From contig JABAKD010000020.1 of assembly GCA_012845835.1 (NCBI GenBank), positions 17,272,306 to 17,336,305 on the forward strand: a DNA stretch of 64,000 bases, written 5' to 3'. Position 1 is the stretch's first letter. Each line of letters opens with the position of its first letter. This document shows, one piece after another, positions 7,163 through 61,400 of this stretch. The notes under the pieces were generated by a model. The model ran no database searches, was not told the origin of the DNA, and saw only the letters and a list, made by a program, of their open reading frames with translations. A program made the position numbers and the translations under genes. Source of the stretch: Undaria pinnatifida (lineage: Eukaryota; Sar; Phaeophyceae; Laminariales; Alariaceae).

Positions 7163-10100
7163 TCACGTTTGGAAAACCTCCTTCAGCCCCTGCATTTCTT
7201 CCTTCGCTGAAAACCAGTAGGCCAGAAAAAGCACCGACGCCGCCGCGCACAGGAAACCCCCCAGCGTCCCGGCCGCCGCCCTCGCGACAATCCTGGCATG
7301 GCCCGGTTATCGAGGGAGAGCGAGATCGAAATCGCAAGGGTTCGTTAAGCTTTCGAGTTACGACGGGTGAATTGGACCTTCTACTTCGTGGCGAGCACGT
7401 ATTGTACGAGTGTGTCTGCGCCTTTGTTGTTTATTTTATGGGTGTGTTCTTGCTCTCACTCCACCATTTCTTGGTCGCACCACAGGTTCCAACGGATTGC
7501 GCGCGCGTGTCCCTGCAACGTCGTTCTTGACAACACATTAAGTCGCGTAAAGCCGCGTGTCTCTTCAATGTTGTTGATAACGCATGAAGTCGATCACCGG
7601 GCAGACTCCAACAAAGTGCGGAATCGAAGAAATCCTAAGGAAAAACAAAACAAAAAAATCACCAGGGTAACGCGCACAACTTCATCAAATCGTATACCTC
7701 AGAATAGCATGTTGTGTGCGTATATGGTTGTCGTTGGCCCCAAACCGCCCCTCCCACCCCCCCCCCCACCCCCCCCGCCCTCCATCCCTCCAAACCCTCA
7801 CCCCAGTGCCCCGTCCGACGTAGCAACAGCGCTGCCAGCCACTAACGCCACCCAGACAATGATGACGGCTTTAGCAGAGCGCAGGTGATGTATTCTTCGG
7901 GCCGTCGCCATCTCGATGCCCCGGTCGATCTCCGTCAGCGCGCGTGCCAAGAGCGGGCCCTGCCTCGGTCGGTCGATCGGTCGGTCGGTCGGTCGTGCGA
8001 GAGACAGAAGGGAGAGAGGAGGAGTCACGCCAGACGCGTGGGGGGGGAGAGGAGAGTCAAGCCCGGGACGTGGGGTTGTATATAGATGGACCTTGGCCTA
8101 GGTTCGACAAAATTGCTGCAATATAAAATATAACAGGTATATATTATAGCTGACTTTTTAAAGCTTGACGCTAACCCTACTGATGAAAACCGACCACGTG
8201 ACAACATTCCCCGAATGAAGACGCAATCAAGAGCAAATAGTGAGGATTATCAACCATTTCGATGAAGCTGGGCCAAGTCCAAAACACCACAGCCGGAGGA
8301 AGGGAAGGGGGGAGTCAAGCCAGCACGAGCGGCGGAGACAACATCTCCGAACAAAAAGTCAGGGTCCCCGATAAACCTATCTAAAACGATATCTTGCCTG
8401 GCTGTTTAACACCAGACAAGAGTGAGGGTCTCCACTAAAAACTTACCTATGAAATATGACCCGGCCGCTCTCGGGGGTGGGCGGTAATTGGCCATAGCGA
8501 AGAGGAACTACTGGTCTGGTAGTCTCAGCGTATACTGCGTTTTGGCTGGATACTAAAAAAAAAACGCCTCGTGCTCGTACACGGTACTCATGCGTCGAGG
8601 CTGCAGTTCCGTAGTTCACATACATATGGACTTCAGACGTCATATTCCAGCGGAAGAATGTCGATTGAATCTGGAACAAATCTCTTCAGATCACGAGCAT
8701 TCGGTTGTTGATTTTGAGTGGAGTAGGGCCGAAACACGACACGTTGGTCAAAACATATACTTCGTAATCGTCTCCCCCCCAAAAAGTGCAACGCTTTACA
8801 CCCTCGCCGAGAAAAATCCCGGAAAACTCCCGGTGGTGCGCGCGCATTCAGCTGCCCTCGCTCAGAAATGTCGGGGGATTTTCTCGGTGCGTGCGTATGC
8901 GTAGCGCCTGCGGGGCAAAATCGTGAAATTTTCGCGGTATTTTCGCTCTCTCCGCACCTGCGGACAGCTTCCTCCGATCGAAGCCTGCGCCAGCGGCAGG
9001 CGTAAGAGGGGGGGCATATCTCCGTTCAGTTCCTCGACGTTGTCGAAGCTTCCATTGCCTTCCAGGTCTCTAGCAATAAACTCGGCGGCCACCTTTCATC
9101 AGCGGTAAAAACGCGTCACCGACATGCGCATCAACTGTTACTACGTGTTTAGCAGACCATACCAATTATTGATATGAGGGGGGGTATAATCGCTTTCCAG
9201 TCTAGCAACAAACTTTTCGGCCACCTGTCAGCGGTAACAGGCGTTATCAACGAGGGAGTCATTGTGTACTTATGCATACAGGAGGCAAGAGGCGGAAGGG
9301 TGGGGGGGATACAAAACCACTCTTGTTTCTCGGTTCGGACGCCCTTTACTGATTTTGTGGGTTGGTTGTCATTTTGTCCTGGAAGAGATCCGCGATATCA
9401 CACACCGAAACGCTTGCACACCCACAAACGAAAAACATACAAAAAATAACATAATATAAATAGACATGCAAACAAACAACACGAACAAAAGAACAGACAA
9501 CAAAAAAGAAGCAACAAGCAACCAACGAACACAAACAAAAAAATAACACAAACCACACAAAATTACGTACACAAACACAAAAAAATAAGCCAACCACCCA
9601 ATGAATGAACAAACCAACCAACCAACCAACCAACCAACCACAGAGCCACTAGGGCTGCGAGATGGCTAGACTTGACGGCTAGATAGTATTTTGACGGTGA
9701 AGAAAGCCAACTAAATGACTTTTAGTGTTATAAAAGTAATACAACGCGAGCAACAAACGCGCCAGACTGATCCAAAGACACTGAACCTCACAAATTTCAT
9801 CTATTCATAACTGCAGTACCCAAAACACCTAGTGGGCGACTTACAGTCAGCCGGCCAACTCAAAGCCGTAAACATTAGGGATCACAGTTACCTATGGCCG
9901 GTAACTTACGGGCAACACTGTGAGAGGTAGGTGGCACAAAAATCTCCGGTAGCATCTAGTGTCCCCTATCCCCCCGGTAAAGAACGCCTATGATATACAC
10001 ACATTGGAAACCGCCTAACGCATCACCCTTTACCCCGGAGGGATTGTTCATACCCCCTCCCCCCGGTAACTGCCTTAAAAACAAATATATATATATAATA

Positions 10101-13100
10101 GTTGGTCTCGGTTGGCACCGACGCTGTAAAACATTATACGAAATATATATATTGGGGTTGGAGTTGGTTGGCAATGACGCTCTAAAACATGGCAGTCACT
10201 GCGTGAGCTAAACAGGGTACCGTTTTTGTTTGTTTTTTTTGGGGCCACCATGATTGTTATCGAGTAGGTCATATTGTGCGGGGTGGAGAACCCTAACTGC
10301 GCACAAGGGGAATGATCGCTTCACGTAGTGTGAATATGGCAAGGTACCCACGAGGCAGTTACATAGAAATGCCCATCGCTGTCTCTGGAGTGGCCACACC
10401 AGAAAACAAAGCAACTCATTGTCACTGTCATCCATAAGCAGGAAAACAGGCACAAGGTGCCGAAGTCCGTCTTACGAGCGGTTCTTGGAAGGATGCAGTT
10501 CACCCTTCATGCGACTCGCCGAACACCTCACGGCGCTTCGCGCTTGGTGCAAGCAATGTTTGCCTGGTTGGTGAAAACCCGACGTGCTCCATCCCGGCAT
10601 AGTAGGGTTGTGAGGGTCTATGGTCATACGACTACGGCCAAGCACAAACTGAGTACATCTCCCCCCCCAGTAACTGCGGTAGGCCACACGGAAGTCTGGA
10701 AATCGTGGATTCCCTATACGTATATAACATGGCTTACTACAGGAAATTGCCATTCCTGGTAAAACATAACACAAACAATATCTCACCCCATGGTGATCCG
10801 ACAAGTTGACGCGTCTCACAGCCGACACCGCGGCCCCCTGCCCCCTCCCCGCGCCCCTCCTTACCCCGCCGCCCCCGACGCCGTCAATATAATGTCCCGC
10901 CCGCGATCGCCCTGGGGACAACACGCCTCCAAACTGGTTTCTACCAGGTCCATTCGTTGACGGCGATGACCTACTAATAGCACCGTCACGGGTCGGAGTA
11001 GACGGGGATGTCGTCAATGACGTAACCGGGGATGACGCTGTTGATGTCGAGATATAAGTCGACGGAGTGGCTCCCTCTGGTGGCAGCAAACCTTCGGCGT
11101 CTTCCTCCGGGACGTGCTACAAGTTGCGACGCCAAAAAACAGCGGTAGCATCGACGGTGCGGGGGGGCGGGGGGGAGAGGGGAGGGAGGGGGCAAGGGAG
11201 AGAGAGGGACGGGGCGTTTCGGAAAGACGTTTCGAAAAGACGTTATGGAAAGCGGTGCTTCGGAAAGACAATCAGGTGGCGCGGTGTCACCCGCGGCAAC
11301 CCGCACTCTACATCCGCTCTCGCAATCGCCATCCCCAGACAATTACATAACCCGACCAACGCGCAACCCCCCCCTCAGAACCCCCCCAAACCCTCCCGCA
11401 CTACCCCTCCCCCCCCCAAAAAAAAAACACACACACTCCCAGCCTACCTCTATCCCCCCCCCCCCCTTCCCCACACCTACCCCAACCCCCACCCCTTCGT
11501 GGTTGCCTTACCGCCGTGTGTACCCAGCAGTCGCGCAGCTCCCACGTGGGTTCTATCGCCTGCGGCGCGCACAGCGGAGGAGGTACGGCCTTGAATAGCA
11601 CGTAGTCCAGCCTTATCGGCGGATCCCTTTCAGATACGTCAGAGGAAGCATACACACGAAAACACACGAATAGGGCAACGAGGACATACACCAACACAAC
11701 GACACAAACGGACACGCAAACACACACAGACAGTACAAGGACACACGAACACACAGACACACACGCGTGCACGAACAGGGCAACGACACCCAGACGAGAC
11801 AAGGCAGGGCGTGGAAGGCGGGAGATCGGCCGCGTAAAAAAACGACGAAGGAAATATGCGGCGACAAATCAGAGCGGTGAGACAATATCCCGAAACCGTC
11901 AATCGTTCCCGCGTCTCGCAAAAAATGAACCTTGAATAATTCCAGTTTTTTTCATGGATCGGATCACCTCTTCCGGGTCGGGTCGGGTCGGATTGGGTCG
12001 GGTCGGGTCGGATTGGGTCGGGTCGGGTCGGATTGGGTCGGGTCGGGTCGGATTGAGTCGGGTCGGGTCGGATTGGGTCGGGTCAGGGTGACCTGACCAG
12101 ACCCGTGATACTTGAAAACATCCCGACCCGACCCGACCCGACCTGACCCGACCCGTGGATTTCGAACACCTCCTGGCCAGACCCGACTCGACCAGCGAGC
12201 TCACGAAAACTTCCTGACCCGACCCGCGGGCCGGGTGATGATCCGTGAAAAGCGTACCACCCGGCACTCTCGTTTAATAGGAGAAAAAACACTGGGCAAC
12301 ACAATACACGACTTTCAGGGGGTACAATTTGAATATCCCATACAACACTGGAGTACTCGTGCTCGGTTGTGTACGGGCTGCGAAAGGGTTAACAAGTAAG
12401 TTGTCATTTTTTACCTCCTCCTCCTCCTAATAATGACGCCTGCTACGACAGCGGTAGCACATTTCGCCCGAAAAAATGGTTTCTGAACGCCGGGGCGGCT
12501 TCCTTAACCAAAGTCGCCGGAAATAGGACAATTCTTTTGCAGTGAAATTCTCGTCGTGTACCTAGGCCATGGTATTTTCAATTCCGGTACGTAGCAGTTT
12601 TCATTTTTCTCCAAATCAGTTTTTGCCTTAGAGAGGTCTTAAACCGCCCAAACTGAGGAACCTCAGAAGGAAAAGGAAAAACGGGGCGCACCACTATCTT
12701 AGCCCGTGCCAGCGGCAGATGCGTCTCCTGGCAGTTTCCATCAGGGATGCTCCGGGACTGGCCGTATGCGGTCGGCCCACGTATTGTAAGCATGCCGGGG
12801 GCACGGGATAAAAGTACTGAATATCGCGTCTGCGGTTGGGGTTGAAAAATGGGTCAACAAGTAACTTGTCTTCACCTCGGCGGCTGATCAAAGCACGACT
12901 TGGCTCATTTTCGCATCATTATATCGCTAGTATGTAGCGTGAATCAACATCGTGATTTCAACATCGTGAATCAACATCGTGACTATCGCATCTGCGGTTG
13001 GGGTTGGGAAAGTGTCAACAAGTAACTTGTGTTTACCGCAGGGGCCGATGAAAGCACGACTTGGCTCATTCTCGCATTATTACATCGATATTAGCGTCAA

Positions 13101-15984
13101 TCAACATCGGACGCGTGCCATAAATAGAGGTGCACCACTTTTTCTTCTGAGGTTCCTCAACTTGGGAGGTTTAAGACCTCTCCCAAAAACTGATTTTGGA
13201 GAAAAATGAAAACTGCTACGTCCCGAAAATAAAAATAGCTTGCGCTGCCGGGGTTGTAACGAAGACCACTGATAGGGACAGCTTACGCTATACCTACAAT
13301 GGGACCCGGAGGGTGCGCCAGCTAGCGTTGGGCTGCGAAAGCAACTGAGTTAAATCGACACACGACGCGTATGAAAATACGTGGAAGTGTGGTGAGCTAA
13401 AGCTTTATTTTTCCCCATCCGCCGGAGGATAAAAAAAAAAAATACCATCGTCTAGCTACACCACGAGAATTTCATTGCGAAAGAATTGTCCCATTTCCGG
13501 CGACTTTGGTTAAGGAGCCGCCCCGTCGTTCAGAAACCATTTCTTCACACGAAATGTGCTATTAATACCTCTATTGTGTAGCATTGGTCATCGCGCGAGA
13601 GGGGATGCTGTTGAGCCCTAACAGGTATGAGCGACAAACAAGAAGGAGAGCACTGCAGGTGGATAAGAGGGACGACACCTATGAGCGCGGACGACTTGTC
13701 CAGCAGGCCAAAGAGGGTAAATTATCAACCTTCCAAGGGTTGAACTGGAAAGTACTAAAAAGGGCTGATCAGCTAAAAACAAGAAACAAAAATGAGAGGT
13801 GAAAATTCGAAGCAAAACGAACACTTTTTTTTTCCCCGTTTGAGGGTGAAATACTCCGTGTTGAACTATTGTAGAAAGCAATGAAAGCGAAACCAACCAA
13901 CAAGAATAAACACGTGAGAAAGGGGGGGGGAATTGAAATAAATAATTATAAGTGCAAGCTTATCGTCTCTACTTTCATCTGGGATGTGTTTGTTTTTTCA
14001 GACTCCGTGAATAAATAAAGAAAATAGAAACAAAACAAATTGTCTTTGAGTGGAGGACTAAAATAACGAAACAAATTTATAATTTTAAGAAATTGCCTTG
14101 TTCCTGGGGAGGCTAAACATGAGTAAATAAATGGTTAAATAAATGAACGAAAAAGAAAAAACACCATCTGTTTCTATAGTAGACGAAAAATAAACAAACT
14201 CACCTCTTGTTAGCGAACACGTTATCCAAGGCCTCGCACGTGTACCCCGCCTGCCGAGGTTTGGCTTGAGCGAATGCGTCCTCCAGCCCGGCAACGCTTC
14301 GCTGCAGTCCGTACGGCATCGACCCGGGTCCCGCATTGAGATCCGTCTGCGGGGGACACAAAGTGTCGGCGTTGTGCCGACAGGAACTAAAAGTCAGTGT
14401 CACGTGTCCCTGTATCGTGTGATTGATTGCGCATGTGTGATACCAGCCAATCACAATGGTGTTTTCAAGCCGATCGGTCAATCGGCACAAGCGGCTACCA
14501 GGCATATACAAAATATCAGGGCATTTCACTGGTCCAGTCACTTACCGCGGGTCGGGTTGGGTCGGATCAGGGTGTCCCGATCCGACATGACCTGACCTGA
14601 CCTGTGGATTTCAAATCCTCCTGATCCGACCCGACCCGACCCGACCCGACCCGACCCGACCCCACCCGACCCAATCCGGGAGACCTCCTGATCCGACCCG
14701 ATTCCACCCGCGACAGTTTACAAAACTCCTGACCCGGCTCGAGGGTCCGATTATGACCTGTGAAAAGTCCTGCAAAATATGGAAATATGAAAAATTCCAC
14801 ACCTAGGACAGATGACGATCGAAATCATATAGATCATATAGATCATGTAAATCATATACATCATATGTATAGACCATATAGATCATATAGATCATACAGG
14901 TCATATAGAGCATCTAGACCATCTACAGTACATCCCGTATCTGCCGTTACGTGACGTTGTGCTCGATCTGCATCCCTGTAGACTACAGAGCCCTCCGAGA
15001 AAAAAACGAGCTAGGTCACGCAGATCGTACGGCTCCCACCGGATGACATGAGCTAGACCGTACAGATCTTCCCTGGAAGATCTAGATCATTAAGTAGGGA
15101 TACATCATGATGGATCATCTGTCCGAGGTGGGCAACCTGACTACTTGTCTCTCTCTCTCTCCCAGTCCGTATGGAATCGACCCAGGTCCGCAGCTGAGGC
15201 TCGTCCAAGTGCGGGGGAGGGTGTACTTATTTCACGCAGGGCGGTAGTCTTAAGGCCGTTTACCCTCGGGGGGGGGGGTACTCATTGTTGCTTGCCTTAG
15301 TCATTTGACCATTGACCACGCATCCCTTTCGAGACGGAACACCGTTCCTACTCCTAATAGACACCTCCAACATTTGGGCGCTCATTACGCTTCTGCCATG
15401 TACTGCATAGAAACTGTTTGCTTATCTCATCCCCGTCCTGTTTCGCCGTCTGCGGCCACCATCCATCTCCTAGGATAGCGATCGTTTTCTCGCCACTCTC
15501 TAGTCTACCAGACTCTTCCATGCCACATACGTCTACTTTCCCCATCCCCTCCTCTCACGCATCCCGTTCCTCCTTGTATATTGCACATTCTCCTACTGCG
15601 TGAGTCCTACTCTCTATTGTTGTGCCACACGGGCACATATTTGTAGCCACGTCCTCCTCTTCTCCCTACTACTGGTTTACATATTTTTCCTTCCTGGTAG
15701 GCCCAGGTTTTCTACATGAAAAATCAGTTTCAGCTGTTTCGCGTGGTCCATTAGGCCGTGCAGTTACGTTTTCATTCCAATATCTTCCCTCAACCCCCCG
15801 TATATCTGTTAAGTGCTTCTCCTCATTCACGTTATTTCTTAGCGCTTGCTTTCTCTTTCTACTCTTATTTATTTTACTTCTGTCTTGTACCCGCCAAACT
15901 TCTCTGTAAACATTACCTCTTCTTGGTCTCCCCCTGTACCCTTCCATACTTTCTCGACTACGTTATTCCATCTATTCCAGCTCG

Positions 15985-16016
<32 letters not shown>

Positions 16017-19000
16017 CGGTGTTGTCCCGATAGGAGCGAGAAAACAGAACAATGTGTCCCTGCTATCACTGCTATCATCCAATACGTACGGTACCAGCCA
16101 AGCACAGCGGTGATGCCGTACCACACCGCAATCCCTGAGACCCGCAGCACCTATCGTCTCTGTAAGCGTTGGCTAGGGAGACAAAAAGTCAGTACGTACA
16201 AGTACTGTTGTGCCCTCCTTCCCTCCGCTTTGGTTCCACTACGTCTTCATACAGCGGACGGGGTCCTTACCAGGAGGAGGACGAGAGGGCTCTTGCTGGT
16301 GAGGCGGATAATGTGGGCCAACTCGAAAGCTTGTGCGACACGGTGGGCCTTGTACCTGTCCGAATAGGAGCGGTGAGCGAGATCCGTCAAACGCCAGGGA
16401 AAAACACCACAACAGACTGTTTGCGTACAATTTTTTATTATCGAACAATACTCTGCAGACACTAAAAGCAGTGAAACCACTGGTACTGTTCAAGGAAACG
16501 AGACGCCTTCGTTACTACAGCGCATCGTCACACTTGGCGAACTGCCGTTCAAATACATCCAAGGTACATACTAGTATCATAAATACAGTAGACGTTACGC
16601 GGACCCTCTAATCCACCAGGCTGTGATGAAACAAGGAGCATCGCAGCATGCGCACAAGCATTGCAACGTTCCACGAGCATTGCAGCATGCGTGGTACACG
16701 AGAGAATTACAACACACGGTGACCTGCAGAGGTGGCCCCTGTAACGCCCTAAAAGCGGTCAAATTCAAAATCCAAGCAGCTTCACCGCAAAAGGTGGGTG
16801 TAGTGCCTAAAGGGGAAACCGTCCGCGCAACAGGCCCGCCCCATTGGCCCGCCAGTCCGCCCCTACCTCCCCTCCCCCCCCACCCCCCACCCCCACCCGA
16901 TACAGGATCTAGATTGCGGCCATGGATGGTTCGAGTCGTCCTCCTCCCTCCTTCCCCCCCCCCCCCCCCTCCGCCCCCTCTCCTCCCCCCCCACCTGCTT
17001 GCAGATGGCGACCCTTTTGCCCGGTCGTAGTCGGCATGCAAGTGCGAAACATACAGGTCGACGGCTCCAGCAGGCGTGTGTAGGCGAACCAGCCCGACCC
17101 CTTTTCCTCCCAGATAGTCGCCGTGTTTCAGCTGATACGGCTGACCATTCGCCGAAAATCGCTGGGGGCGGGAGAAAAGAAGAGGTCATAGACAGGGGAC
17201 GGGCGGCGGTGGGGGTGGGGCAGGGAGGCGGGGAGCGGGGGGGGGGGGGGGGTTGACTTAGTCGCCGCTCTTCGCCTGCTACGGCTGACCATTAGCCGAA
17301 AATAGCTGGGGGGTGACTTGGCTGTCCCGATACCACACACCTATTTCCGATACCCAAGCAGGGGGGGCGCGGGGGGGGGGGGTACTAAAAACTCAGCAAA
17401 AAAAACAAGAAAAAAAAACTAAAGATTAAAGACATTAGGCCGATGACAATGGAAAGCCGATAGTTTGTGCAAAAAGTTTCCAAAGTTTTTTTTGGGGTTA
17501 TTTGCTGAAAGATTCCGGGTAACGTTGCTATGGGGGAAAACGATTAAACTATTTTTTTTCTGGCTTTTTTTTTCGTCATGCGATCCAACAGGTCAATTCG
17601 CCTATGTTTCATCAAGCCCTGGTCAACATTGTCCAACAAACACGATGGACCGTCGATCTCGAGATAGAGACAATCCACGGTCACTGCTCTTCGCTCCGTA
17701 CAAAGCCACATGAGTGTAGTTGACAGCGCCAAATAATTCATCTCGATCCATGCCCTAGGGCGTGAGAGGTTGCTTGTGTTGTCCTGTGGTCTTCCGTCAC
17801 ATCCTCTAAAAATAATGTTTTTCGCCCGTTGGGAGACGATAGACAGTTGTTGTCTCAGCTTTCTGCACACCAGCCGCCAAATGTGTTTCTAACAGGAGCC
17901 TGATCGGCGCCCGCCACAAATCACCGCCCCGTAGATTGAGCTCTGTACACCAAGGGGGGGTTGGAGCTCCTAATGCCAAGTTCAGAGTTCACGACGCTGT
18001 CGCTGATTTCGTCGAACACAGTGTGTGGAGAACACGAAACTACGCCGCGTCTAATCCAACATCTGCTTGAGAATTTCTCAGGCCGATGTTGGCCAAGATC
18101 GCTGCGAGAAACCGGTTTTTATTTTTCCAGAATTCTGGAATTTTTCAAAAAACAATTCTACAAAAATCGGGCCCATAGGCGACCGTCCGGGCAAATTTTG
18201 GCTGGGATCTTCGGGGATTTCGATCTTTTGGCCTTCCATTGTCAACGGTCTTGCACAAAGAGAAAACTACCGACACTTTGTTTTTCACGCCGATATGGCA
18301 GCGAGTGAAGTATTGTTTCCTCTTGTTCTCGTGCGCCCTAGAGAGCTCTGGTTTACACAACCCACACTCAAAACCTGTTTTGGAGAACAACTGCCAAACG
18401 CATGACCCGACGATCACTCCCGGATTACCTAGACACACGTCACAAACAAAACGTCACCCTGGCAGTACACAGGCGGGACCGCCAAAATATTGGGCACTTC
18501 CTAGGTTGAGGAACCCCACCGTCAGCCCCAAGTATGTCAGGAGACGGTCAGTCAAGGTAAAACGTCAAGCGGTCAAGGGTGTCGAACCGATCGTTACACA
18601 CTAAAACCTAGTAGTTTGCCGTCAGTCAAGGTACATCATTGGAAAATTACCGTCTATAAAGAGGCGAAAGCGGGAGCACGTCAAGCGGCCAAGGGCGTCA
18701 AACCGATCGTTCCACGCTAATACCTAATGGTTTGCCGTCAGTCACGGTAATTTTTCGGAAAATTGCCGTCTGTCGAGGGGTGGAAGTGGGAGGACGTCAA
18801 ACGGTCAAGGGTGTCAAACCGATCGTTCCAGTCTAAAACCTAGTAGTTTACCGTCAGTCAAGGTACATCATTGGAAAATTGCTGTCTATAAAGAGGCGAA
18901 AGTGGGAGAACGTCAAGCGGTCAAGGGTGTCAAACCGATCGTTCCAGTCTGAAACCTAGTAGTTTGCCGGCGGTCAAGGTACATCATTGGAAAAATGCCG

Positions 19001-22000
19001 TCTGTCAAGGGGTGAAAGTGGGAGCACGTCAAGCGGACAAGGGTGTCAAACCGATCGTTCCTTAAAACCTACCAGGTAGTAGTTTACCGTCAGCCAAGGT
19101 AAATAATCGTAAAATTGCCGTCCGTCAAGGGTTCAAAGTGCCGCCTCCTGACATCTTTGGTCAGCCATACCATTTTATCCAGGGCTTTTCACGGGTCATG
19201 ACCGATCCGCGGGCCGAGTCAGTAGGTTTTCAGACTCTCGCGGGTCAAGCCGGGTCGGTCTGGGAAGTCTCACGGGACGGTTTTTGGGTCGGTTCAGGAG
19301 ATGTTGAAGCCTCACTGGTTGGGTCAGGTCGGGTCGGATCGGATTACCCGGACCCGACCCGAACCGCGAGAACTGGTCTGACCCGTGAAAAGCCATAAAC
19401 TTTCCATCCTGAAAGTACCCTTCCTACCACAGGACGCAACCGGTACTCCGCGTTGAAAGGGATACCTGGTCAACAGCCAAAAGACCAAAGCAAGCAAAGA
19501 AACATGACCACCTCCCCCCCCCCTCTCCCCCCTCACCACAGCAACATGCGGCTCGCTTCCGCAAAAACAGCGGCAAAGAAACAAGTAAAAAACATACTTC
19601 GGGAGATAGCAAAAACTCTCAACCAACCAACCAGCAAAACTTTTCACGAAATAAAATAAAATAGCACTCACCCAGAAAAAACTCTCGGCGATTGGGAAGC
19701 GAGACAGCACCATCAGCCCCGTCCCGCCGGACCCCGCCCCCATCAGCGGCGCCCCGCAGCCCTTCTCGAAGTGACGGCTGTACCTCAAGCCGACCGATAG
19801 TGCCGCCCGCCGCAGAGCGTCTCGCTCGCGCGCGTGCCACACCTCCTGGAGTGCGACGACGTCCCATCCGCTGCACGAGGAAGGCGTTAATTATCGGTTG
19901 GGGATAGGGGATCGGTGAGGGGGGGTCTGTGCGGTGCAGGGAACGCTAACGCTGGCTTACACCGATACTTCGCATCGCGGGAGGCTTGTTACAGTGTCCC
20001 ATGACGGAACAATTACAGCATCATCCGTCGCACCCAGGGAATGACGAGGGGGTGGGGGGCGCATCTCCACACCAGGGGCGCTCGGTGCCCTCAAAACGGG
20101 CTGCACGGTACCACCGTAGAGGGCACGCGTAGGCGTGTACCGGTGCACGCCCCTGCCGCCAGAGGCCCATCGCACTACCAAGGCCACGAAAGCAACAAAA
20201 ACAGCATCCATACAAAATCCGAGCGTCGAAGACCTGCCTCCGCCGACAACAACCTTACCCGTCTCCTGTCCCTCCCCCCCCCCCCCCCCCCCATCACATC
20301 CCCTCCCCCCCTCCCCCCCGCCCCATATGTATGAGGTACGTGTATGGATATGTACCCCCCCCTTCTTCGCCCTTCCCCCGTCCCTTTCTCAACCCCCCCA
20401 TTCACCACCCCCACACAGTCCTCACCTCCCCAAGGTCTTGGCGAAGGCGTGTACTCTTGCCTCGAGGCAGCAGCTCACCACGGGCAGCGCCCACAAGTTC
20501 TGGGTCAGGACGCGGAGCCTAAACCCCGCCCAGCTCTGGTCGCTGTTTGGGCCACCGGGGTATATGCCACCGGAGTGTGCCACCAGAGTGTACCACCGAT
20601 GTGCGTCACCGATGTGTGCCACGGATGTGTGCCACCGATGTGTGCCACCGAATTGTGCCACCGAATTGTGCCACCGATGTGTGCCACCAGGGCGTGCCAC
20701 CGATGTGTGCCACCGGGGTATGACACCGAGGTGCGCCACCGGAGTGTGTGACGACGGAAAATCGAGCGCGGAACAGGCCGAATGGGAAGGTCAAGGTTAG
20801 CCACTATAGGTTAAGCAATCAATTTTGAGGGTGAGCGATCTACTTGTAGCACTGTGACGACCGGTACATATCGTCAAGCTGAGCCCTCGCGCCGTCCATC
20901 CAACCTTGCACTACCGTAACAGCCCGCAACCCATGCAACATATTAACGATAACCCTATAACGAAAAAAACGCACACACGCACACACGCACACACGTCGAG
21001 CCACACACACACGTCGAGCCACAAATGCGCCAGCCAGACGAAGCAACACGCAGACACCTTCAAACTATCGCACGCAACTAGCTACTATAACTAGTCAACT
21101 AATAACTAGTCGGCGACTTACACTTTTTTGTGTGTTGATCGATAAATATTGTTAATCCATCGCCTTTACTCTCCAGCTCAACCCACAAGAGGTTTCACCC
21201 TCAGCGACCTTCTGGACAAGCCGTGGTCACACCGTGTGTTGCCTTCCCCCCGGTACTTGCCTTCATTTTATCACGCATAGGGCTCAGCATTCCCACTTTT
21301 CAGCTTGTTAAGCTCGTCCAATTTCATCGAATTTCATTATATGGCCCGCCAACCCACACAGCCCTTAGCCCTGAATCGCTTGTTCCTTGGCGTGTCAACC
21401 TTCTCAGCAAAATACAGGGCATCAATCGTCCAACCAAAAGCGGCACAGCAACAAAAAAAAACACCTCAATAACGCTCACAGAAGTTCCTCCACTTAGCGT
21501 CACCCCCAGATCCACCAACAAACATCCCGCCTAACCCCCACCGCTAACCATTACTAGCGCTCCAGCGGACAAAAATACAACCCGCCACCAAGGACATTAA
21601 ACACTAGCAACAGCAATATCGTTTTGTCGCTTATCGCTCGCCCCCCTCCCCCCGCTGCCACCTTCCGGGGGCGGAAACCCCAACGCGTTTACGCCGCACA
21701 GCAGTTCACCCCTCCGACGTTGAAACGCTCTCCTAATACAGCAAATCAACTGAACGCGAACATTGTGACCAACCCCCCCCCCGCCCCCCCTTTTCCCTCC
21801 CGCCCCTCCCCCTCCCCCCAGCCCCTACCCCCCCCCTTCCTCCCTGCTCTCTGCTCCCCCCCCCTACCTCTCCCCCCAGCCCGTCCCCGCCTCCCCCTGC
21901 CCCCCCCCCAGTCCCTACCCCCCCTCCCACCCCAAACCATCCCCCCCACGTCATACCTCCACCCCCCCCTCCCCTCCCCCGTCCACTCCCCCTCATGTCC

Positions 22001-22156
22001 CCCCGTTTAGCTCACCTTCCAGAGATAGCCCCGACGTCGGCTTCCGTTCCGTATGCGTCCTTAGTTTTTCCCGGACCGTAATCCCACAGGTCCATCCAAA
22101 TTCGGGTCAAGCGGGAGATCCGCCCCGGCCCTTCCTCCCGAGCGTAGAGGTCAGCC
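7163..22156 (-). CDS. Neutral sphingomyelinase / ISC1-type phospholipase C, 11 exons, 5' incomplete
   Basis: Exons in transcript order: 22156-22016, 20542-20426, 19870-19672, 17161-16995, 16355-16271, 14346-14204, 11626-11512, 11116-10787, 9092-8958, 7959-7802, 7292-7163 (stop 7163-7165). All junctions are GT-AG, phases match, and together they give 572 codons plus stop. The product is a magnesium-dependent endonuclease/exonuclease/phosphatase-fold enzyme that hydrolyses the phosphodiester of sphingomyelin or inositol-phosphoceramide to ceramide. Motifs in order (numbering from the first codon seen): LTQNLW 59-64 (Asn62), LQEVW 93-97 (metal Glu95), HGDY 165-168, HLH 192-194, TDLN 237-240, RLDYVLF 289-295 and SDHHG 428-432 (catalytic Asp-His). 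Two C-terminal hydrophobic helices, about 507-523 and 538-557, match the membrane anchor of SMPD2/ISC1. An insert of roughly 100 residues rich in Ser, Thr, Pro and Gly (exon 8) separates RLDYVLF from SDHHG. Exon 2 could instead start at 20518. The N-terminal Met exon was not found. Brown algae probably use inositol- or other phosphosphingolipids, so the substrate is open. Confidence 0.88.
7802..7959 (-). CDS. First membrane-helix exon of the sphingomyelinase-like gene
   Basis: Acceptor GAGGCAG, then GPLLARALTEIDRG, a basic stretch ARRIHHLRSAK and a hydrophobic segment AVIIVWVALVAG. It exits in phase 2 at GTGAGG and joins the last exon (7163-7292), which carries the second helix GGFLCAAASVLFLAYWF and a short charged tail before TGA. 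The basic residues before helix 1 suggest that side faces the cytosol. The donor is followed on the sense strand by a long G-run. Confidence 0.75.
7965..7998. repeat. GGTC microsatellite
   Basis: Perfect to near-perfect GGTC units interrupted once by GATC. It lies directly upstream, in transcript sense, of the acceptor at 7959. Confidence 0.7.
9191..9240 (-). pseudogene. Decayed copy of the 5' border of sphingomyelinase exon 9
   Basis: On the minus strand this reads CCGCTGACAGGTGGCCG and on through a TTTGTTGCTAGACTGGAA block, closely matching the true border at 9110-9050 (CCGCTGATGAAAGGTGGCCG, then TTTATTGCTAGAGACCTGGAA). It lies 132 bp upstream of the true exon in transcript sense. It covers the last bases of the intron, the AG and about 35 bp of exon, and then diverges. 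Confidence 0.72.
9420..9645. repeat. A-rich ACAAACA tract ending in AACC repeats
   Basis: Low-complexity AACACAAACAAAA-like sequence, ending in six AACC units at about 9615-9640. No gene is seen in it. Confidence 0.6.
10080..10660 (+). mobile_element. Retroposon family A, longest copy
   Basis: Begins in the GGTTGGCACCGACGCTGTAA region and ends at CACAAACTGAGTACA followed by a C-run. Other copies: 41740-42414, 49251-49450, 59118-59440, 61320-61680, a minus-strand piece at 53832-53945 and a 3' stub at 40545-40600. Copies begin at different points but share one 3' end (a TGAGTACA-like word and then C-rich DNA), the signature of 5'-truncated retroposition. A frame of about 70-100 codons stays open in several copies (QFTLHATRRTPHGASRLVQA), but the opposite strand is open too, so coding is unproven. 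Confidence 0.65.
11965..12250. repeat. GGGTC-type satellite family C, copy 1
   Basis: 20-bp units GGGTCGGGTCGGATT-like on the plus strand, turning into CCCGACCCGACC-like units near 12120. One edge carries the conserved words CGGGCCGGGTGATGATCC and GTGAAAAGC. Related copies: 14545-14775, 19185-19395 and 47230-47480. Every copy has the CTTTTCACGGGTCAT-like edge next to CCCGCGGGCC, then variable numbers of GGGTC-rich units. Confidence 0.75.
12455..13561. mobile_element. Foldback-type DNA element with long inverted termini
   Basis: The left end starts TAGCACATTTCG and the right end is its inverse, CGAAATGTGCTA. The arms stay similar for over 130 bp (GGTTTCTGAACG, CCTTAACCAAAGTCGCCGG, GAAATTCTCGT) and resume at 12590-12690 and 13130-13230 (TTTTCATTTTTCTCC). 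The interior holds a direct repeat of about 125 bp (12826-12950 and 12984-13108) containing GTCAACAAGTAACTTGT. No transposase frame is seen. It lies in the intron between sphingomyelinase exons 6 and 7. Confidence 0.72.
14545..14775. repeat. GGGTC-type satellite family C, copy 2
   Basis: Minus-strand orientation of the conserved edge (CTTTTCACAGGTCATAATCG at 14775 inward), followed by CCCGACCCGACC arrays at 14625-14680. The flank at 14795 onwards is the GATCATATA repeat. Confidence 0.7.
14815..15130. repeat. GATCATATA / GATCT-rich repeat
   Basis: Tandem AGATCATATAGATC units at 14822-14930, then irregular GATCT words to about 15120. It is in the same intron as the exon 6 border copy. Confidence 0.65.
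15163..15222 (-). pseudogene. Decayed copy of the 5' border of sphingomyelinase exon 6
   Basis: On the minus strand, CCCCCGCA followed by a GGACCTGGGTCGATTCC block and ATACGGACTG matches the true border at 14355-14300 (CCCCCGCAG, then GGACCCGGGTCGATGCC and GTACGGACTG). It lies about 870 bp upstream of the true exon in transcript sense. Repeat family C and the GATCATATA tract now lie between the two. Confidence 0.72.
15279..15982 (-). mobile_element. 5'-truncated LINE-type retrotransposon
   Basis: Minus-strand frames give the end of a LINE second open reading frame: FGGYKTEV, then a zinc-knuckle-like CPCG-x9-HAVGEC block near 15570-15630, then AILGDGWWPQ and NERPNVGGVY before the stop near 15354. 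Frameshifts and a TGA near 15570 show it is dead. The 3' end is a tail AAGGCAAGCAACAATGAGTA followed by a C-run (G-run 15268-15278 on the plus strand). The 5' break abuts a run of about 30 G at 15985-16014. Tail-only copies lie at 40719-41280, 48113-48198 and 48251-48318, and on the minus strand at 50689-50815. Confidence 0.72.
15985..16014. repeat. Long poly-G run
   Basis: About 30 consecutive G, the longest homopolymer in the window. It lies at the 5' break of the truncated LINE. Confidence 0.85.
17258..17315 (-). pseudogene. Decayed copy of the 5' border of sphingomyelinase exon 4
   Basis: Minus strand CCCCCCAGC followed by TATTTTCGGCTAATGGTCAG matches the true border (CCCCCAGC, then GATTTTCGGCGAATGGTCAG) and lies 144 bp upstream in transcript sense. 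Read in the same frame it has in-frame TAG and TAA stops within 16 codons, so it cannot replace the true exon. Confidence 0.78.
18540..19145. repeat. 116-bp tandem satellite, about 5 copies
   Basis: The phrase GTCAAGCGGTCAAGGGTGTC (and one-base variants) recurs at 18564, 18680, 18796, 18912 and 19028, exactly 116 bp apart each time. Each unit also has CCGATCGTTCC, AAACCTAGTAGTTTGCCGTC and GTACATCATTGGAAAAT. It lies inside a 2.5-kb sphingomyelinase intron. No frame runs through it. Confidence 0.93.
19185..19395. repeat. GGGTC-type satellite family C, copy 3
   Basis: Edge GGCTTTTCACGGGTCATGAC with CCGCGGGCC, then GGGTCAGGTCGGGTCGG-like units to 19345 and an inverse edge near 19380. It begins about 40 bp after the 116-bp satellite ends. 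Confidence 0.7.
20562..20750. repeat. GTGCCACCGAT minisatellite
   Basis: Around fifteen 11-14 bp units of the type GTGCCACCGATGT. Frames on both strands therefore read as artefactual Cys/Pro or His/Gly repeats. It lies just upstream of the acceptor of the LTQNLW exon. Confidence 0.85.
20985..21015. repeat. ACAC/CACG simple repeat
   Basis: CACACACGCACACACGCACACA-type sequence. Confidence 0.6.
22016..22156 (-). CDS. Most 5' recognised exon of the sphingomyelinase-like gene
   Basis: CTGCAG acceptor before 22156, 46 whole codons starting ADLYAREEGPGR and ending VGAISG, donor GTGAGC after 22016. It is not a recognised domain. It is joined to the gene because its exit phase (2) fits the next exon, because it is on the same strand, and because a strong G-run follows its donor as in the other exons. 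A further 5' exon would have to exit in phase 2. A short candidate near 22860-22915, next to an ATC microsatellite, is possible but unsupported. Confidence 0.6.
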
Positions 22157-22194
22157 CTGCAGAGGAGAAGGCGGCGAAAGAAAGCGTGTGTGTG

Positions 22195-23560: not shown

Positions 23561-23566
23561 CGCCGG

Positions 23567-24280
23567 CTACGCGTCCGTTACGCATCGAGTACACGTCGAG
23601 TAGACCGCGAATACACGTCGGGTAGACTTCGAATACGCGCCGGGTACGCGTCGCGTACGCGTTGCGTACGCGTCGGGTACGCGCTGGTTACCGTTGGTCA
23701 TGCGCTTGTTGCCCTTTGGCTACCGTCGGGTAGGCTTCGGTTACGCGTCGGGTTCGCGTCAGTTACGCATTAGTTACGCGTCGATTTCCGTAGCTATCGT
23801 CGGGTTCGCGTCAGTTACGCATCAGTTACGCGTCGGTTTCCGTAGTTACCGTCGGGTTCGCGTTAGTTACGCATCGGTTACGCGTCGGTTTCCGTAGTTA
23901 CCGTCGCGTTCGCGTCGAGTACGCGTCGGTTACGCGCCAGTTACGCATCAATTACGCGTCGATTACGCACCAGTTACGCGGCGGTTATCGTCGGTCACGC
24001 AGGTTGCCCTTCGCTTACCGCCGGGTACGCTTCGGTTACGTGTGATATACCGCCGGGTACGCGTCGAGTACGCGTCAGATTCGTGACAGTTACGTTATGG
24101 TGATGCGTCGGTTACCGTCTGGTACACGTCGGTGACGCGTCGGATACGCGTCGAACACGCGTTCGCGACGCGTCGGTTACCGCCGGGTATGCGCTGCTTA
24201 CACGTCATCTACGCGCCGGGTACATGCCGGGTGCACTTCGATCACCACCAGTTACGCGTCGGCTACATGTCGGTCATGGT
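23567..24280. repeat. 12-bp-type minisatellite with dense ACGCGT sites
   Basis: Over 700 bp of GTTACGCGTCGG-like units, most with the palindrome ACGCGT or near variants (GGGTTCGCGTC, ACCGTCGGGT). No stable frame runs through it. It lies in the gene-poor stretch between the two large divergent genes. Confidence 0.88.
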
Positions 24281-24379
24281 AACGTGCAACAAGAAATGCT
24301 ATCTCCCTCCCCTCCCCTCCCCCAAAAAATAACTGATACAAAACATCGCGCCGCGCGTCGTGTGTTGCCACCCACCGTC

Positions 24380-52765: not shown

Positions 52766-52798
<33 letters not shown>

Positions 52799-55700
52799 CG
52801 TTGTCGTTGTCGTTGTTGTTTTTATTGTTGGTTTCGTTGTTGCTGTTTTTTTTTCCCACATCGTTTGGTGTTGTTTTTTTTTTACAAGATTGTTGCTTTG
52901 TCACGCTTGCATCGCGGGGTATTTTGTCCTCCTTTGGCTATTTTGTTCTCCTCTTTAGCTTGCTTTTTTTGTTTTTTCTTGTTCTGTGGCAGGATAATGC
53001 CGACCTTCCTCCCCCTCGCCCCTTCCCCGTTTTTTTGTCAGGTTGTCTGTGCGTGCTTGGTGATATTCGTGGTATTGTGGCGAGTCTTGTTTCGTGACTT
53101 AGTGGATTCACACGCATTTTTTTTGTATTGCCCCCCCTTCACCCCACCCCATACCCCTCCCTCTCCCTGCCCCTACCGAACGCACGTATCGCGCTCGTTC
53201 GCTCGACCCCAGGCATCCTTTACGCGGATGTCGGGATGGACCTCAGCAACGTTCTCCTCGAGGACCTTCCTATCCTAGGCCTCTTCTCAAGGGTCATAAT
53301 GGAGACCGGGACTTCGAGCATGGACCGCGTGCAGCTATCCCGCCGCATCGGAAGCCAGACTGGAGGCGTTTACGCGACATTCTTAGCTGATCAGCCGTCG
53401 GCGGGAGGGGCAGTTGCCGACCCGAAGGCCCTGAAGCAGTTCCTCTTCCTTCGCGGAAAGGTGGGGGTGGGGTTTTGGGGGGGTTGGGGGGAGGGGTGGC
53501 GGGATGAAGGTGGTGGGGGTTGGCCCTTTTGGGGACTTGATTGTATCTTGATTATAGTATGCAGACCAGAAAGCGACGAGCGCGGTCTATTCAGGGCGTC
53601 TACGGTAGGAAAAGCTTGAGGGAATCCGAGTATCGTCATGCCTCGCGCTTGCCTCACAGCTTCTTCCTGCGTGTGCAGTTCGAACACATCTGCTACCCCA
53701 GCAGCAGCTCGGGTTGCTTCATGTGGCCGATGCATGCTGTAGTCGGCAGTTTTTTCCCCTGGATTATTTTACGTCTAATCTGAAGAACCAAAGGGGTTCA
53801 TGACCGAGATAATTGCTTGCCGTGGAGGCGTGTATGTGTGTGCTCAGTTTGTGCATGGCCGAAGTAAGTCACTATCATCATAGACCCTCACATCCCTACT
53901 ATGCCGGGACGAAGCACGTCGGGTTTCCACCAACCAGGCAGGCCGTGGAGGGGGGGGGGTACACCGCCATGTTGACTACCGGGTTTGAGCCACTCGCACG
54001 AGCGACTCCGTACCTCGCTGACTACATGAAATAAGATATGTAGGCGTGTTCTTTGGCGCAGCTTAGCCAACCGTTGCATGGCGGTGCGGCTTCGCATCGC
54101 CAACTCAAATCAACACGAAAGCTTGAGACCGCGAAATAACAGGGGGTCGCTCGCGCGAGCAACCACGAGCCACTGCTAAAATTGTCCCAAAAACGACACA
54201 ACCCCCTTCCGAGATGTTGACATGTTGACATGTTGACATGTTTACATGTTTCGAGATGTCTAGATGTTTACATGTCGAGATGTTTGGATGTTGACATGTT
54301 TAGATATCTAGATGTCTAGATGTTTACATGTTTAGATGTCTAGATGTCTAGATGTTTGGATGTTGGCATGTCTAGATGTTTGGATGTTGACATGTTTAGA
54401 TGTCTAGATGTTTACATGTCTACCAGGTAGATGTTTAGATTTTTAAATGTCTAGATGTCCAGATGTCTCGATGATTTTGTGGGTAGGGGGGGCACGTGCC
54501 ACGATAGAGGTATACCTTTTTTTGGCGAAAATTGTTTCTGAAAATGGTTTCTGAATGACGGGGCCCCTCAACAAAAAAATCGTCGGAAGTACGATAGGAT
54601 AGGTCATTTTATTCCCATGATTCTCGTTGCATACCTGGGCCATGGGATTTTGCATCCGGGATCATAGCAGTTTTGTTTTTGTCCAAATCAGTTTTTGGTT
54701 CAAGAAGGACATGTCTTGAGCTGTCTCAACCTCCTCCTAAATTGAGGGGTGGTATTAAGAAAAAAAGTGGAGGGGGGACGTGGCAGCCTTGAGAGGGTGC
54801 GCTTCCCCCCCCCCCTCCCCCCCCGCTACCGCCACGACTTGTGATGTTGTCGGGCGTGATGGTCTTGAGCGCGTGTGTGTTTCCCCTACTAATGGTGCTG
54901 CCTGCGACTCAACGAGCACCGCACTCGACTACCCGCCCAAGTTAAAAACGCGAAAAAAACATGGAGCACCTGGTCCTTTTGAAGATGACGTAAACGTACA
55001 AAGATAACATATAGATGGGATGAGCAAAAAACAACAATGAAATGTGTTTGTGGCTTGAGAATGTTGTTGTGATTGCTGCCCGAGCACGAATCTGGCCTTC
55101 TGAACCCGATTCCTGTAAACGCGGTTTCCTCGGCATGGCAGGCGGTGGTCGACAAGGTGCCCGACATGCTGAACATCATGTTTGATGTCATCACGGATGC
55201 GAACCTCGACAGCCAGCAGAGGGTCGTGGAGATGCTCAAGGAATCCAAGGTGCTTAGTATAAATGCAACATGCATGTTATCGAAAGTTTGTGTGTGGATC
55301 GACTATACTATCGTATGAACTTTGTGGGGGGGGGGCGTGAAATAGTGTATTCACCGACAGCCAGCAGAGGGTTTCGTAGAGATGCTGAAGGAATTCGACG
55401 TGCTTCATATAGAGCAACATCGATGTGAGAATGCAAAACGTGTGTATGTGTAGACAATATTCTATGCTGTAGTTTGTGTGGGGTGAAGGTATTAATATAT
55501 CTGGCAATCGACAGCCAGCAGAGTGTCGTGGAGGTGCTGAAGGAATCCAAGGCGCTTAATAAACATACAAGTACAATGTTGATGACATTAAAAATCTGTG
55601 TGCAGTATACATACTCTATGTGGAGTAGTTACAGTAGTTTGGGGCGAAGTTCGCAAACAATCGGCGACCTTCAGAGGGCGCAGTTCATTGCGAGCTGACG

Positions 55701-58415: not shown

Positions 58416-58452
<37 letters not shown>

Positions 58453-61400
58453 GTTGATTAATTGTTTGGATGATTGGTTGGTTGATTGATTGATGGATAC
58501 TACTGTAGATAGGTAGATAGGTACATATATGGATGTATGGGTGGGTGGATGGACGGATGGGTGTATAGGTGTATGGGCGTGGGACGGATGGATGGATGAA
58601 TGGATGTCCGTCTGTCTGTCTGTTGTGTATTTTTGCCTGTGTCTTTTGTCTGTTTGGCTAGCTGATTGTTGGCGATAAGGACCAGGCGGGGTTGGGCGTG
58701 TGGCGTGTGGTGTTAGGGTTCTTGAGGTTCTTGAGGTTCTTGGTGATCGGTTTAGCTATGCGGCGGCTCTTCGTGTATTTAGGTGTGTTTGCGTTTTTCG
58801 TTCTGTTAGTTTTTTGTGGGCTCTGGGAGGTGAAAGCGAGGGCTTCGTCGTTCTGACACAAATGTGCTTCTCTCTCAGTTTTGGCCTGTTGAGCCACCTG
58901 TAGGTTGGTTGTCCCGTGTCGTGCTGGGGGTTGTGGCGGTATGTTCTCTGCCGCGGCTGTTTTCTAGGTGTGTGTAGCTCAACCCCTCCCCACGACATAA
59001 ACCCTTTTAGCACCGCATTCCTGACATGGGGACAAAGCACTTGGAGTTAGAATAGGAAAAGCATTTGAAACAAATAGGAGTTGGAAATGGGTCAACCCCC
59101 CCCCCTAATACGATAGGGTAAGGCACCCACGAGGCAGTTACATAGTAATACCCATTGCTGTCTCTGGAGTGGCCACACCAAAAAACAAATCATAACTCAT
59201 TGGCGCTGTCACCCATAAGCAAGAAAGTAGGCACAAAGTGCAGAAGTCCGTCTTTCGAGCGGTTCTTGGAAGGATGCAGTTCACCCTTCATGCGACTCCC
59301 CGAACACCTCACGGCGCTTTGCGCTTGGTGCAAGCAATGTCTGCCTGGTTGGTAAAAACCCGACGTGCTCCGTCCCGGCATTGTAAGGGTACGAGGGTAT
59401 ATGGTTTTGAGACTACGGCTATGCATTATATAAATAAACCCTCCCCCCCTCCTCCACATTAACCCCCCCCCCCCCCCCCCGCTTCCATACTTAACAAACG
59501 CCTCGTAAAGGTGAACTACGTGGTGAAAGGCGGTCGATTGTACCAGCCGGGGGAGGTCGTGCCAGGGCAGGCCTCGGTCGTGTCCCGATTCCTGAGGACG
59601 GGCTACCTGTGGGACACCGTGCGCGTGATGGGGGGTGCGTACGGGGGCTTCACGAAGTTCAACCCCGTGTCGGGACTGTTTAGCTGCTTGTCCTACCGGG
59701 ACCCTAACCTCGGAAAGACTTTGGACAACTACGATGGTTGCTCCGGTAAGAGCCTCTGATTGAAGTTTAGTTTTTTTTTTTAATTAGCATTTTTTGTGTC
59801 CAGCTTTGGATGTCGGTGCAGTGGGGTTTGGTTATGTATGGGGTGGGTGCGTGTTGTGTTTCCTGCGTCGTCGTGTCGTCGTCGTCGTCGTCGTCGGTTT
59901 TTTTCTAATGATATCGGAAGGTGTTACAGGCATCCTTGCATTTTTTTTTTTCGAGTCATTTATCGTGCCCTGATAGCGCGATGTTTTGTGTTTACGTGTT
60001 CATGTGACGGCAATATTCTTCATTATTCTTGAGTGTTATTCGTTATTATTCTTTAGCCTTCGTCATTCTTCATTATCCTTCATTATGCTTCATTATTCAT
60101 TATTCTACATTATTCTACATGTCAGCATTCTGTCAGCATTCTATCCACACCAACACCAACAACGTGGTCACATTGTCCGCTGCCTCTTTCTCGTGCCTTT
60201 TTTTTTTACAGCGTACCTGACTGAACTGGACCTTCCGCAAGAAGAGCTGGACTCTTCGATCATCGGCGCGATCGGGGACATGGATGGCCCCATGCCCGCG
60301 GACACCAAGGGGTGGGCCAGCCTGCGAAGACACCTCATGGGGCACACCGATGAGACTCGCCAACGCTTTAGGGACGAGGTACGCGAGAGCTTCGAACACC
60401 CGCCACGAACAGGATAATGCAGCGCTTTTTGTCTTAAACGTTCGCACGGTGAACAGACGACCGATCCCCACCTGGGTGATATTTTGACAGATCTTTCAGG
60501 GAATATCTGTATGGTCTATAGCTCATGTTATCTGTTGGGAGCCGTACGGTCTGCGTGATCTAGCACACACGCACGTTTTTCCGGGGTTGAATCTGTACTA
60601 TTTACGTATAGATGCTGCACGACATCTCGTAACGGCAAATACAGGATCTGTTGTAGATCTGTTAATAAGGCATGTGTGGATGATCTATTAATAACAGATC
60701 GTGATCTGTCTGAGCCGTGAAAACGTTGCTGTTTCATGGGGCTCCGCAGCAGAGGAAGTGTCGGCATACCGTTCGTAGTTCGCAACGTTGTTCGTTGGAT
60801 ACCTAGGCCATGTTGTTCTTTCATCGGTCTTTTTCATCGGTCTGCAATCAGTTTCTCGACGATATCGTAGATTTAATTCACCAGCACCATATCGTAAATG
60901 AAATGTAGATGTACCACGCAGCTTGCAAAGGTGAGTTTCAACCATTCAATCGGGCGTACTCACAGCTGACGTTTATTTTTTTTTATTTTTTTTTCTATAA
61001 TCAGTTTCTCGAACAATGTTTATTGTGGGTGAGGTATAGAGCGCTCCTCACGCGACAAGATTTAGGAGAACCTGATACTTTTTGGCGTGTGTGCCTTCGT
61101 CTGCACTTGTGGGTGCATGCGTATCTATTGACCCGTTGTCTGTTCCGCTCACCGATGCTTTGTTTTCGTTGTTGTGTGGTGAGAGGGGGTGCGCTGGGAC
61201 GGGCGGGCCGCAGTGTGTGTGGCTCCTTGTTTTGTGCTGCACGTGTTTTTGTCTATGTTTTGCTCCATCCGCTTATCGTACCCTTTGTTCACACTTGTTC
61301 CCCCCTCCCCCCCCCGTTGTACAAGGGGAATGATCGCACCACGTCGTGTGAATATGGTAAGGCACCCACGAGGCAGTTACATAGTAATACCCATTGCTGT

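What the first reader, a model, noticed from the sequence alone, without database searches (positions are those of the whole stretch)
8958..58905. Decayed partial copies of exon-intron borders in three genes
At least eleven partial copies were found: sphingomyelinase-like gene exons 4, 6 and 9; PreP exons 5, 11, 13 (twice), 15 and 16; nested-gene exon B (twice). Acceptor-type copies always lie 5' of the true exon in transcript sense, and donor-type copies always lie 3'. Every copy includes both exon and adjacent intron DNA. This is what tandem duplication of a segment spanning a border leaves: one intact border stays functional and the other copy is free to decay inside the lengthened intron. 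It suggests that border-spanning duplication is a routine route of intron growth here. Tandem duplication is known as an intron-gain mechanism; a systematic border-copy pattern would be a different, growth-type outcome.
Basis: partly seen in the sequence, partly recalled or inferred. Interest (0 to 1): 0.88.

Follow-up and report, generated by a model that had tools for sequence, protein, structure and literature searches.

The report
Decaying exon-edge duplicates inside introns
In the genes sampled from this large eukaryotic genome about one exon edge in ten has a worn-out copy of itself in the neighbouring intron, nearly always on the side where it does no harm, which marks introns that grew by local duplication; the duplication seems to be a general process rather than one aimed at exon edges.

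Summary
The pattern extends beyond the window. Of 446 exon borders from 66 regions, 51 have a direct copy of the border region on the predicted side (40 span the border itself), 1 on the other side, 0 in another gene's intron, 0 inverted. The copies decay like unused DNA: exon half 80%, intron half 70% identical; 15 of 29 frameshifted; splice dinucleotides lost at about the neutral rate. One-sidedness argues strongly against symmetric insertion and fits tandem duplication plus selection.

The stronger claim is not supported. Intron positions away from borders carry copies at 7.7% per side against 11.4%. The border excess is 1.1- to 1.9-fold, which slower decay of a half-constrained pair may explain; I did not model it. 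The event itself is in print: a potato duplication crossed an intron-exon boundary and made a new intron (PMC4974935). What looks new is the frequency and the growth-type outcome. Why most copies are spaced by unrelated DNA is unresolved.

The parts
17259..17312 (-). Decayed acceptor-type copy of SMase-like exon 4 start (source 17115-17168; exon begins near 17161)
   Evidence: 85% identity, 56.8 bits
15163..15218 (-). Acceptor-type copy of SMase-like exon 6 start (source 14305-14356)
   Evidence: 77%, 38.3 bits
9189..9251 (-). Acceptor-type copy of last SMase-like exon start (source 9054-9123; exon 8958-9092)
   Evidence: 73%, 39.7 bits
41248..41373 (+). Acceptor-type copy of PreP exon 5 start (source 42387-42518; exon 42477-42632)
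   Evidence: 71%, 65.4 bits
51660..51736 (+). Possible acceptor-type copy of PreP exon 11 start (source 51768-51846); marginal
   Evidence: 65%, 31.1 bits
55355..55476 (+). Donor-type copy 1 of PreP exon 13 end (source 55207-55324; exon 55142-55249), part of a ~150-bp array
   Evidence: 72%, 69.7 bits; array 55207-55706
55508..55570 (+). Donor-type copy 2 of PreP exon 13 end (source 55206-55268); donor GT reads GC here
   Evidence: 87%, 69.7 bits
57950..58077 (+). Donor-type copy of PreP exon 15 end (source 56828-56953; exon 56712-56889); GT kept, donor score 10.7 in the exon and 3.9 in the copy
   Evidence: 66%, 55.4 bits
58821..58885 (+). Donor-type copy of PreP exon 16 end (source 58246-58311; exon 58138-58287)
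   Evidence: 71%, 39.7 bits
43659..43759 (-). Acceptor-type copy of nested-gene exon B start (source 43523-43629; exon about 43447-43538)
   Evidence: 72%, 65.4 bits
43867..43952 (-). Possible second copy of nested-gene exon B start; marginal
   Evidence: 31.1 bits, 38.3 bits
35451..60378 (+). Presequence protease (PreP, M16C) gene, 18 exons placed; exon 1 start, exon 7 start and gene end not fixed
   Evidence: tblastn with 18 bacterial PreP proteins, Pfam, reading, exon finder
8958..22156 (-). Sphingomyelinase-like (Exo_endo_phos) gene, 8 exons tentatively placed; 22016-22156 uncertain
   Evidence: Pfam PF03372 on 19324-19890, exon finder

Best explanation
The genome suffers frequent small local duplications in direct orientation, in introns and, from a small sample, between genes. 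When a duplicated segment covers an exon-intron border, only one arrangement leaves a working gene: the copy next to the rest of the exon stays in use and the other ends up inside the intron. That copy is not needed and decays at about the neutral rate, and the intron is longer by the duplication. Shown here: direct orientation, one-sidedness, near-neutral decay, near-background frequency. Inferred: that the events were tandem at birth, that the gap between copies comes from later turnover or from filler at the repair junction, and that the lesion was a staggered double-strand break filled in before end joining.
For: 446 borders searched: hits at 36 bits or more 51 right side, 1 wrong side, 0 other gene, 0 inverted; 40 span the border. 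33 of 33 borders in the self-comparison are right-sided; a mirror insertion would have cleared the exon in 23, so symmetric insertion has P 1.2e-7. One of the 33 is probably a short dispersed repeat at a mis-called PreP exon 7 start; without it 32, 22 and about 2.4e-7 (my arithmetic). Direct 81 clusters against inverted 10 in 252.6 kb. Exon half 0.80 against intron half 0.70 identity, higher in 17 of 21 measurable, P 5e-4; frameshifting indel in 15 of 29 copies; change rates by codon position 0.164, 0.149, 0.289. GT kept in 16 of 26 donor copies (16.8 expected), AG in 12 of 18 acceptor copies (11.4 expected). Intron positions 51 of 660 side-searches against 51 of 446 borders. Gap homologous to the predicted tandem flank in 8 of 25, against 0 of 19 controls. 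Window clusters per 10 kb: 2.2 in stretches without a called gene (5 clusters), 2.05 in the two gene spans (8 clusters).
Against: Most pairs are spaced: 2 of 21 simple border pairs and 8 of 31 simple intron pairs are adjacent, and 17 of 25 gaps do not reach z 4 against the tandem flank, including pairs at 79-87% identity; the 93% pair does not either. A border excess remains in two-copy clusters (27 against 18.9, P 0.014; 24 against 12.8, 0 of 400 shifts as high, in the 50-region sample). I put it down to slower decay but did not model it. In a first set with badly placed borders the two halves looked equal (0.800 exon, 0.813 intron, gaps not counted).
Confidence: 0.8

Rival explanations
1. 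Copies were inserted at a distance (template switching or templated insertion at a break), not made in tandem.
For: Most pairs are spaced, with unrelated gap sequence.
Against: Such insertion can land either side and often in either orientation. Right:wrong is 51:1 with 0 inverted in 446 borders; mirror test P 1.2e-7.
Confidence: 0.08
2. Each pair is a long target-site-like duplication around an inserted piece: a wide staggered break is filled on both sides and joined with filler, so a border survives although foreign DNA entered beside it.
For: Explains spacing, direct orientation and one-sidedness together. Of ten gaps compared with the other regions three had strong matches elsewhere, against none strong (four weak) of nine control pieces. 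One intron pair's 198-bp gap is a dispersed element.
Against: 8 of 25 gaps show tandem homology instead.
Confidence: 0.15
3. The copies are functional: alternative or mutually exclusive exons, or regulatory decoy splice sites.
For: Some keep a good donor score (10.5, 11.1, 8.7). The C33 kinesin copy is followed by GTAAG and was itself called as a small exon by the finder.
Against: Copies found are partial exons; 15 of 29 frameshifted; codon positions 1 and 2 change at 0.15-0.16; dinucleotides kept at about the neutral rate. No transcript data.
Confidence: 0.05
4. Chance or low-complexity matches.
For: The window is rich in simple repeats; two of the eleven copies are marginal.
Against: 0 of 446 other-gene and 0 of 446 inverted searches reach 36 bits.
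Confidence: 0.02

Closest known systems
Intron gain by tandem duplication crossing an intron-exon boundary (potato RdRp gene, PMC4974935; passages seen)
   Same: The duplicated segment contains the 3' part of an intron and the 5' part of the next exon, with its splice signals.
   Different: There the extra copy made a new intron; here the copy lies in an existing intron and decays. Many cases instead of one.
Rogers-type intron gain by duplication of an AGGT-containing exon segment, and Drosophila cases (PMC2891723; passages seen)
   Same: Local duplication near splice motifs, resolved by splicing.
   Different: Those duplicate coding sequence with a proto-splice site; here the segment spans a working border.
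Small tandem duplications from fill-in of staggered breaks (CST-Pol alpha, PMC8355091; abstract and introduction seen)
   Same: Small direct duplications that add DNA, described there as common in genomes.
   Different: That introduction speaks of insertions under 100 bp; here copies are often separated by a spacer (median gap 200 bp). The lesion and enzymes were not tested here.

Membership tests
Tandem duplication spanning an exon-intron border | Copies in direct orientation | tested here: met
   0 inverted of 446 borders; 81 direct against 10 inverted clusters
Tandem duplication spanning an exon-intron border | Copy lies only on the intron side of the duplicated border | tested here: met
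   51 right, 1 wrong of 446; 33 of 33
Tandem duplication spanning an exon-intron border | Copies adjacent, or whole interval duplicated | tested here: inconclusive
   2 of 21 simple border pairs adjacent; 8 of 25 gaps homologous to tandem flank, 0 of 19 controls
Tandem duplication spanning an exon-intron border | Present in one lineage, absent at the same site in a relative | not testable with these tools
   No relatives held; two paralogue pairs gave no case
Intron gain by tandem duplication | A new intron arises from the duplication | not tested
   No transcript or outgroup data; copies were sought inside introns by design
Duplicated alternative exon | Complete exon with both borders and intact frame | tested here: not met
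   No border cluster covered a whole exon (0, null 3.8); 15 of 29 copies frameshifted
Border-targeted process | Borders hit more often than intron positions | tested here: inconclusive
   34 against 30.1 (P 0.21) and 27 against 18.9 (P 0.014); 51/446 against 51/660 (counts, P 0.044); excess may come from slower decay

The most novel reading that the evidence does not exclude
A large share of intron length in this lineage was built by staggered-break duplications that leave 'A-filler-A' structures. Those that hit exon borders form a dated, self-polarised fossil record: the exon says which copy is original, and the decay of the copy says when, so the rate of intron growth could be measured from a single genome. 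Spaced birth would make this a distinct duplication-with-filler process rather than plain tandem duplication.
Probability: 0.2. Interest if true: 0.72.

Novelty: new variant of a known kind. Interest (0 to 1): 0.5.

Why it matters
Intron lengthening is often put down to transposons (my own background knowledge). Exon borders act as built-in markers: they show which copy is the original, which intron-only repeats cannot. If about 9-11% of borders carry a readable copy (40 and 51 of 446), intron growth by duplication can be counted, dated and compared between species from single genomes. It also suggests that borders tolerate such hits and that the spare splice site fades at about the neutral rate.

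Tried and rejected
Rejected: symmetric templated insertion (one-sidedness); functional exons (no transcript data); selection against the spare splice sites. A first look at few donors suggested faster loss (8 of 10, my count from rows), but the larger set is neutral (its copies are not all independent, and 1 donor and 3 acceptor sites lost to indels are outside the counts).

Superseded: one search's pseudo-exon null (16 of 93 exons, 17.2%, against 16.5%; 24 right-sided pairs, 0 wrong) counted unannotated exons as intron. Searches used 50 regions; the counts, the border and pair counts of 52 and the intron positions of 62 use 66. Pair-level counts (38 exon-intron pairs, null 44.7) showed no excess at all. 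One search took minus-strand loci as transcript-sense, which is wrong; right or wrong side is unaffected. The intron pair at C22_4425880 is a dispersed repeat but is still in the intron counts.

Led nowhere: paralogue comparison for presence or absence: one pair, 97% identical, differs by a 335-bp insertion that is not tandem; the other is too diverged. Gap search in the genome was filled by one repeat. Paper searches listed no paper whose title or abstract start describes the growth-type outcome; I saw capped listings only. Gao and Lynch 2009 (internal gene duplication) I saw only as cited in PMC4974935.

Weak points and rows dropped: the 229 exons include likely false ones (for example window 22730-22873, 35371-35648, 44072-44325 and the 48299 start of PreP exon 7) and miss SMase exon 4 and 11512-11626. 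The HMM matches were typed by hand, the 30 located ones of each plus those I saw inside the regions, so some may be missing. L090 (twin of L089) dropped from then on. In the 14 later regions three HMM matches with stops were left out and three with one stop kept; they only serve as support. The PreP exon 7 start was dropped only. L163-L166 are in no count. One search's other-gene control is one replicate; one search's 330 intron positions are a random draw from a longer list.
Full report
What the window is. The window lies at C27:17272306-17336305 of a 511,146,479-base, 68-contig eukaryotic assembly. A kelp is my guess from size, intron style and recall; a kelp assembly of 516 Mb with mean introns of 1816 bp is in print (PMC11836290, passages seen). 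PreP was located with tblastn of 18 bacterial PreP proteins, Pfam matches on three of its open frames and reading of splice sites. An exon finder trained on 93 HMM exon matches found an exon at 91 of those same 93 and placed PreP and SMase-like exons. The SMase-like gene rests on one Pfam match (PF03372) and predicted exons, and its numbering is tentative.

Checking the observation. Self-comparison of the window found most of the claimed pairs. A border-by-border search found all eleven on the stated side, nine at 38 bits or more and two at 31 bits. Two weak wrong-side hits, 34.0 and 29.7 bits, appeared in C-rich stretches of the SMase-like gene.

Loci were taken by protein family, not by content: M16, kinesin, dynein, plus 14 kinesin stretches chosen by position. 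With PreP and SMase they make 66 regions, 278,319 bases and 229 exons, 128 of them HMM-supported. Some of the predicted exons are surely false (listed in Tried and rejected). Of their 458 borders, 446 had enough flank. Each was searched with up to 75 bases on either side, within 1.5 kb. Hits at 36 bits or more: own gene, predicted side 51; own gene, other side 1; intron of another gene 0; predicted side inverted 0. At 32 bits: 64, 2, 1, 1. Hits spanning the border: 40, 0, 0, 0; so 11 of the 51 touch the border region without crossing the border.

Is it more than background? Local direct pairs cover 10.9% of non-exonic bases. Comparisons give no or a modest excess at borders: all clusters 34 of 91 against a circular-shift mean of 30.1 (SD 4.1, P 0.21), exons with a copy 32 of 229 against 31.4, and two-copy clusters 27 of 68 against 18.9 (SD 3.5, P 0.014). 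Per side, 51 of 446 borders against 51 of 660 intron searches (counts; odds ratio 1.54, P 0.044), and spanning hits 40 of 446 against 36 of 660 (P 0.029). In the earlier 50-region sample the excess was larger, 29 against 20.2 and 24 against 12.8. A border pair should diverge more slowly because its exon half is held in one copy, so some excess is expected; I did not model how much. In the window, cluster density is 2.2 per 10 kb in stretches without a called gene (5 clusters in 22.7 kb, not checked for unrecognised genes) and 2.05 in the two gene spans (8 in 39.0 kb), so the process does not look confined to genes.

One-sidedness. In the 66 regions, 32 border clusters are right-sided and none wrong, against means of 15.0 and 11.1 in the null (no wrong ones in 0 of 1000 shifts; for two-copy clusters 25 and 0 against 8.3 and 4.9, P 0.012). 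All 33 independent borders are right-sided. In 23 of them a copy placed at the same distance on the other side would have cleared the exon, giving P 1.2e-7 for symmetric insertion. One of the 33 (PreP 48299, 44 bits, 7 kb away) is probably a short dispersed repeat (copies at 41257, 48175 and 48295) at a mis-called start; leaving it out changes little. Direct clusters outnumber inverted 81 to 10 in 252.6 kb. Under tandem duplication a wrong-sided copy would come with a whole extra exon, which selection would tend to remove; this last step is inference.

Fate of the copies. Where both halves can be measured (21 borders), the exon half is 80% and the intron half 70% identical, gaps counted, with the exon half higher in 17 (P 5e-4). 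Frameshifting indels occur in 15 of 29 copies with enough exon part, and in-frame stops in 3 of 29. Changes by codon position are 0.164, 0.149 and 0.289, as expected for a freely decaying copy compared with an exon that changes mostly at third positions. Copies keep GT in 16 of 26 cases (16.8 expected from flank identity) and AG in 12 of 18 (11.4 expected), so spare splice sites look neither kept nor purged. An earlier set with badly placed borders showed no difference between halves.

The unsolved part. Most pairs are spaced. Median gap over 33 borders is 200 bp; 2 of 21 simple border pairs and 8 of 31 simple intron pairs are adjacent. If the whole interval had been duplicated, the gap should match the sequence beyond the copy. 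It does in 8 of 25 cases (z 4 or more) against 0 of 19 controls, mean z 2.91 against 0.92. In the window the SMase exon 4 gap also scores z 6.6 there, but that gap is G-rich. So some look plainly tandem and the rest are eroded, filled or spaced at birth. Three of ten gaps have strong matches in other regions, so later insertion explains part. A paralogue comparison to catch newborn events gave none.

Place among known things. A duplication crossing an intron-exon boundary is described in potato, where it made a new intron (PMC4974935, passages seen). Small tandem duplications from filled-in staggered breaks are a known mutation class (PMC8355091, abstract and introduction seen). In the listings of searches I saw no report of border copies as a common residue of intron growth; subscription papers are mostly not held. 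My reading: a known mutation type, at high frequency, with an outcome that exon borders make visible and orientable.

Noticed in passing
window 10332-10631, 41986-42285, 49252-49400, 59113-59412, 61352-61651: A dispersed repeat of up to about 300 bp in five places; three of the five lie in PreP introns, one in the SMase-like gene, one beyond PreP.
   Followed up: no
window 41257, 48175, 48295: A short repeat beginning TAAGGCAAGCAACAAAT in three places, probably the cause of one false border hit at the mis-called start of PreP exon 7.
   Followed up: partly
L100 2401-2778 (gap at C22:4428370-4428567): The spacer of this intron pair belongs to a roughly 200-bp dispersed element: 46 further matches at 80-94% identity in a capped list, in at least four places paired 278-294 bp apart. 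With its direct-repeat ends it looks like a small terminal-repeat element.
   Followed up: partly
window 43193-44325, minus strand: A gene-like set of three predicted exons nested in PreP intron 5, opposite strand; no Pfam match at E 0.001 for the two open frames tried.
   Followed up: no
window 23536-24276; 20539-20785; 54211-54489: Three decayed minisatellites with periods of 11, 13 and 8 bases.
   Followed up: no
L163 2693-3027 against L164: Two kinase paralogues, 97% identical where aligned, differ by one 335-bp insertion beginning in a TTG run.
   Followed up: no
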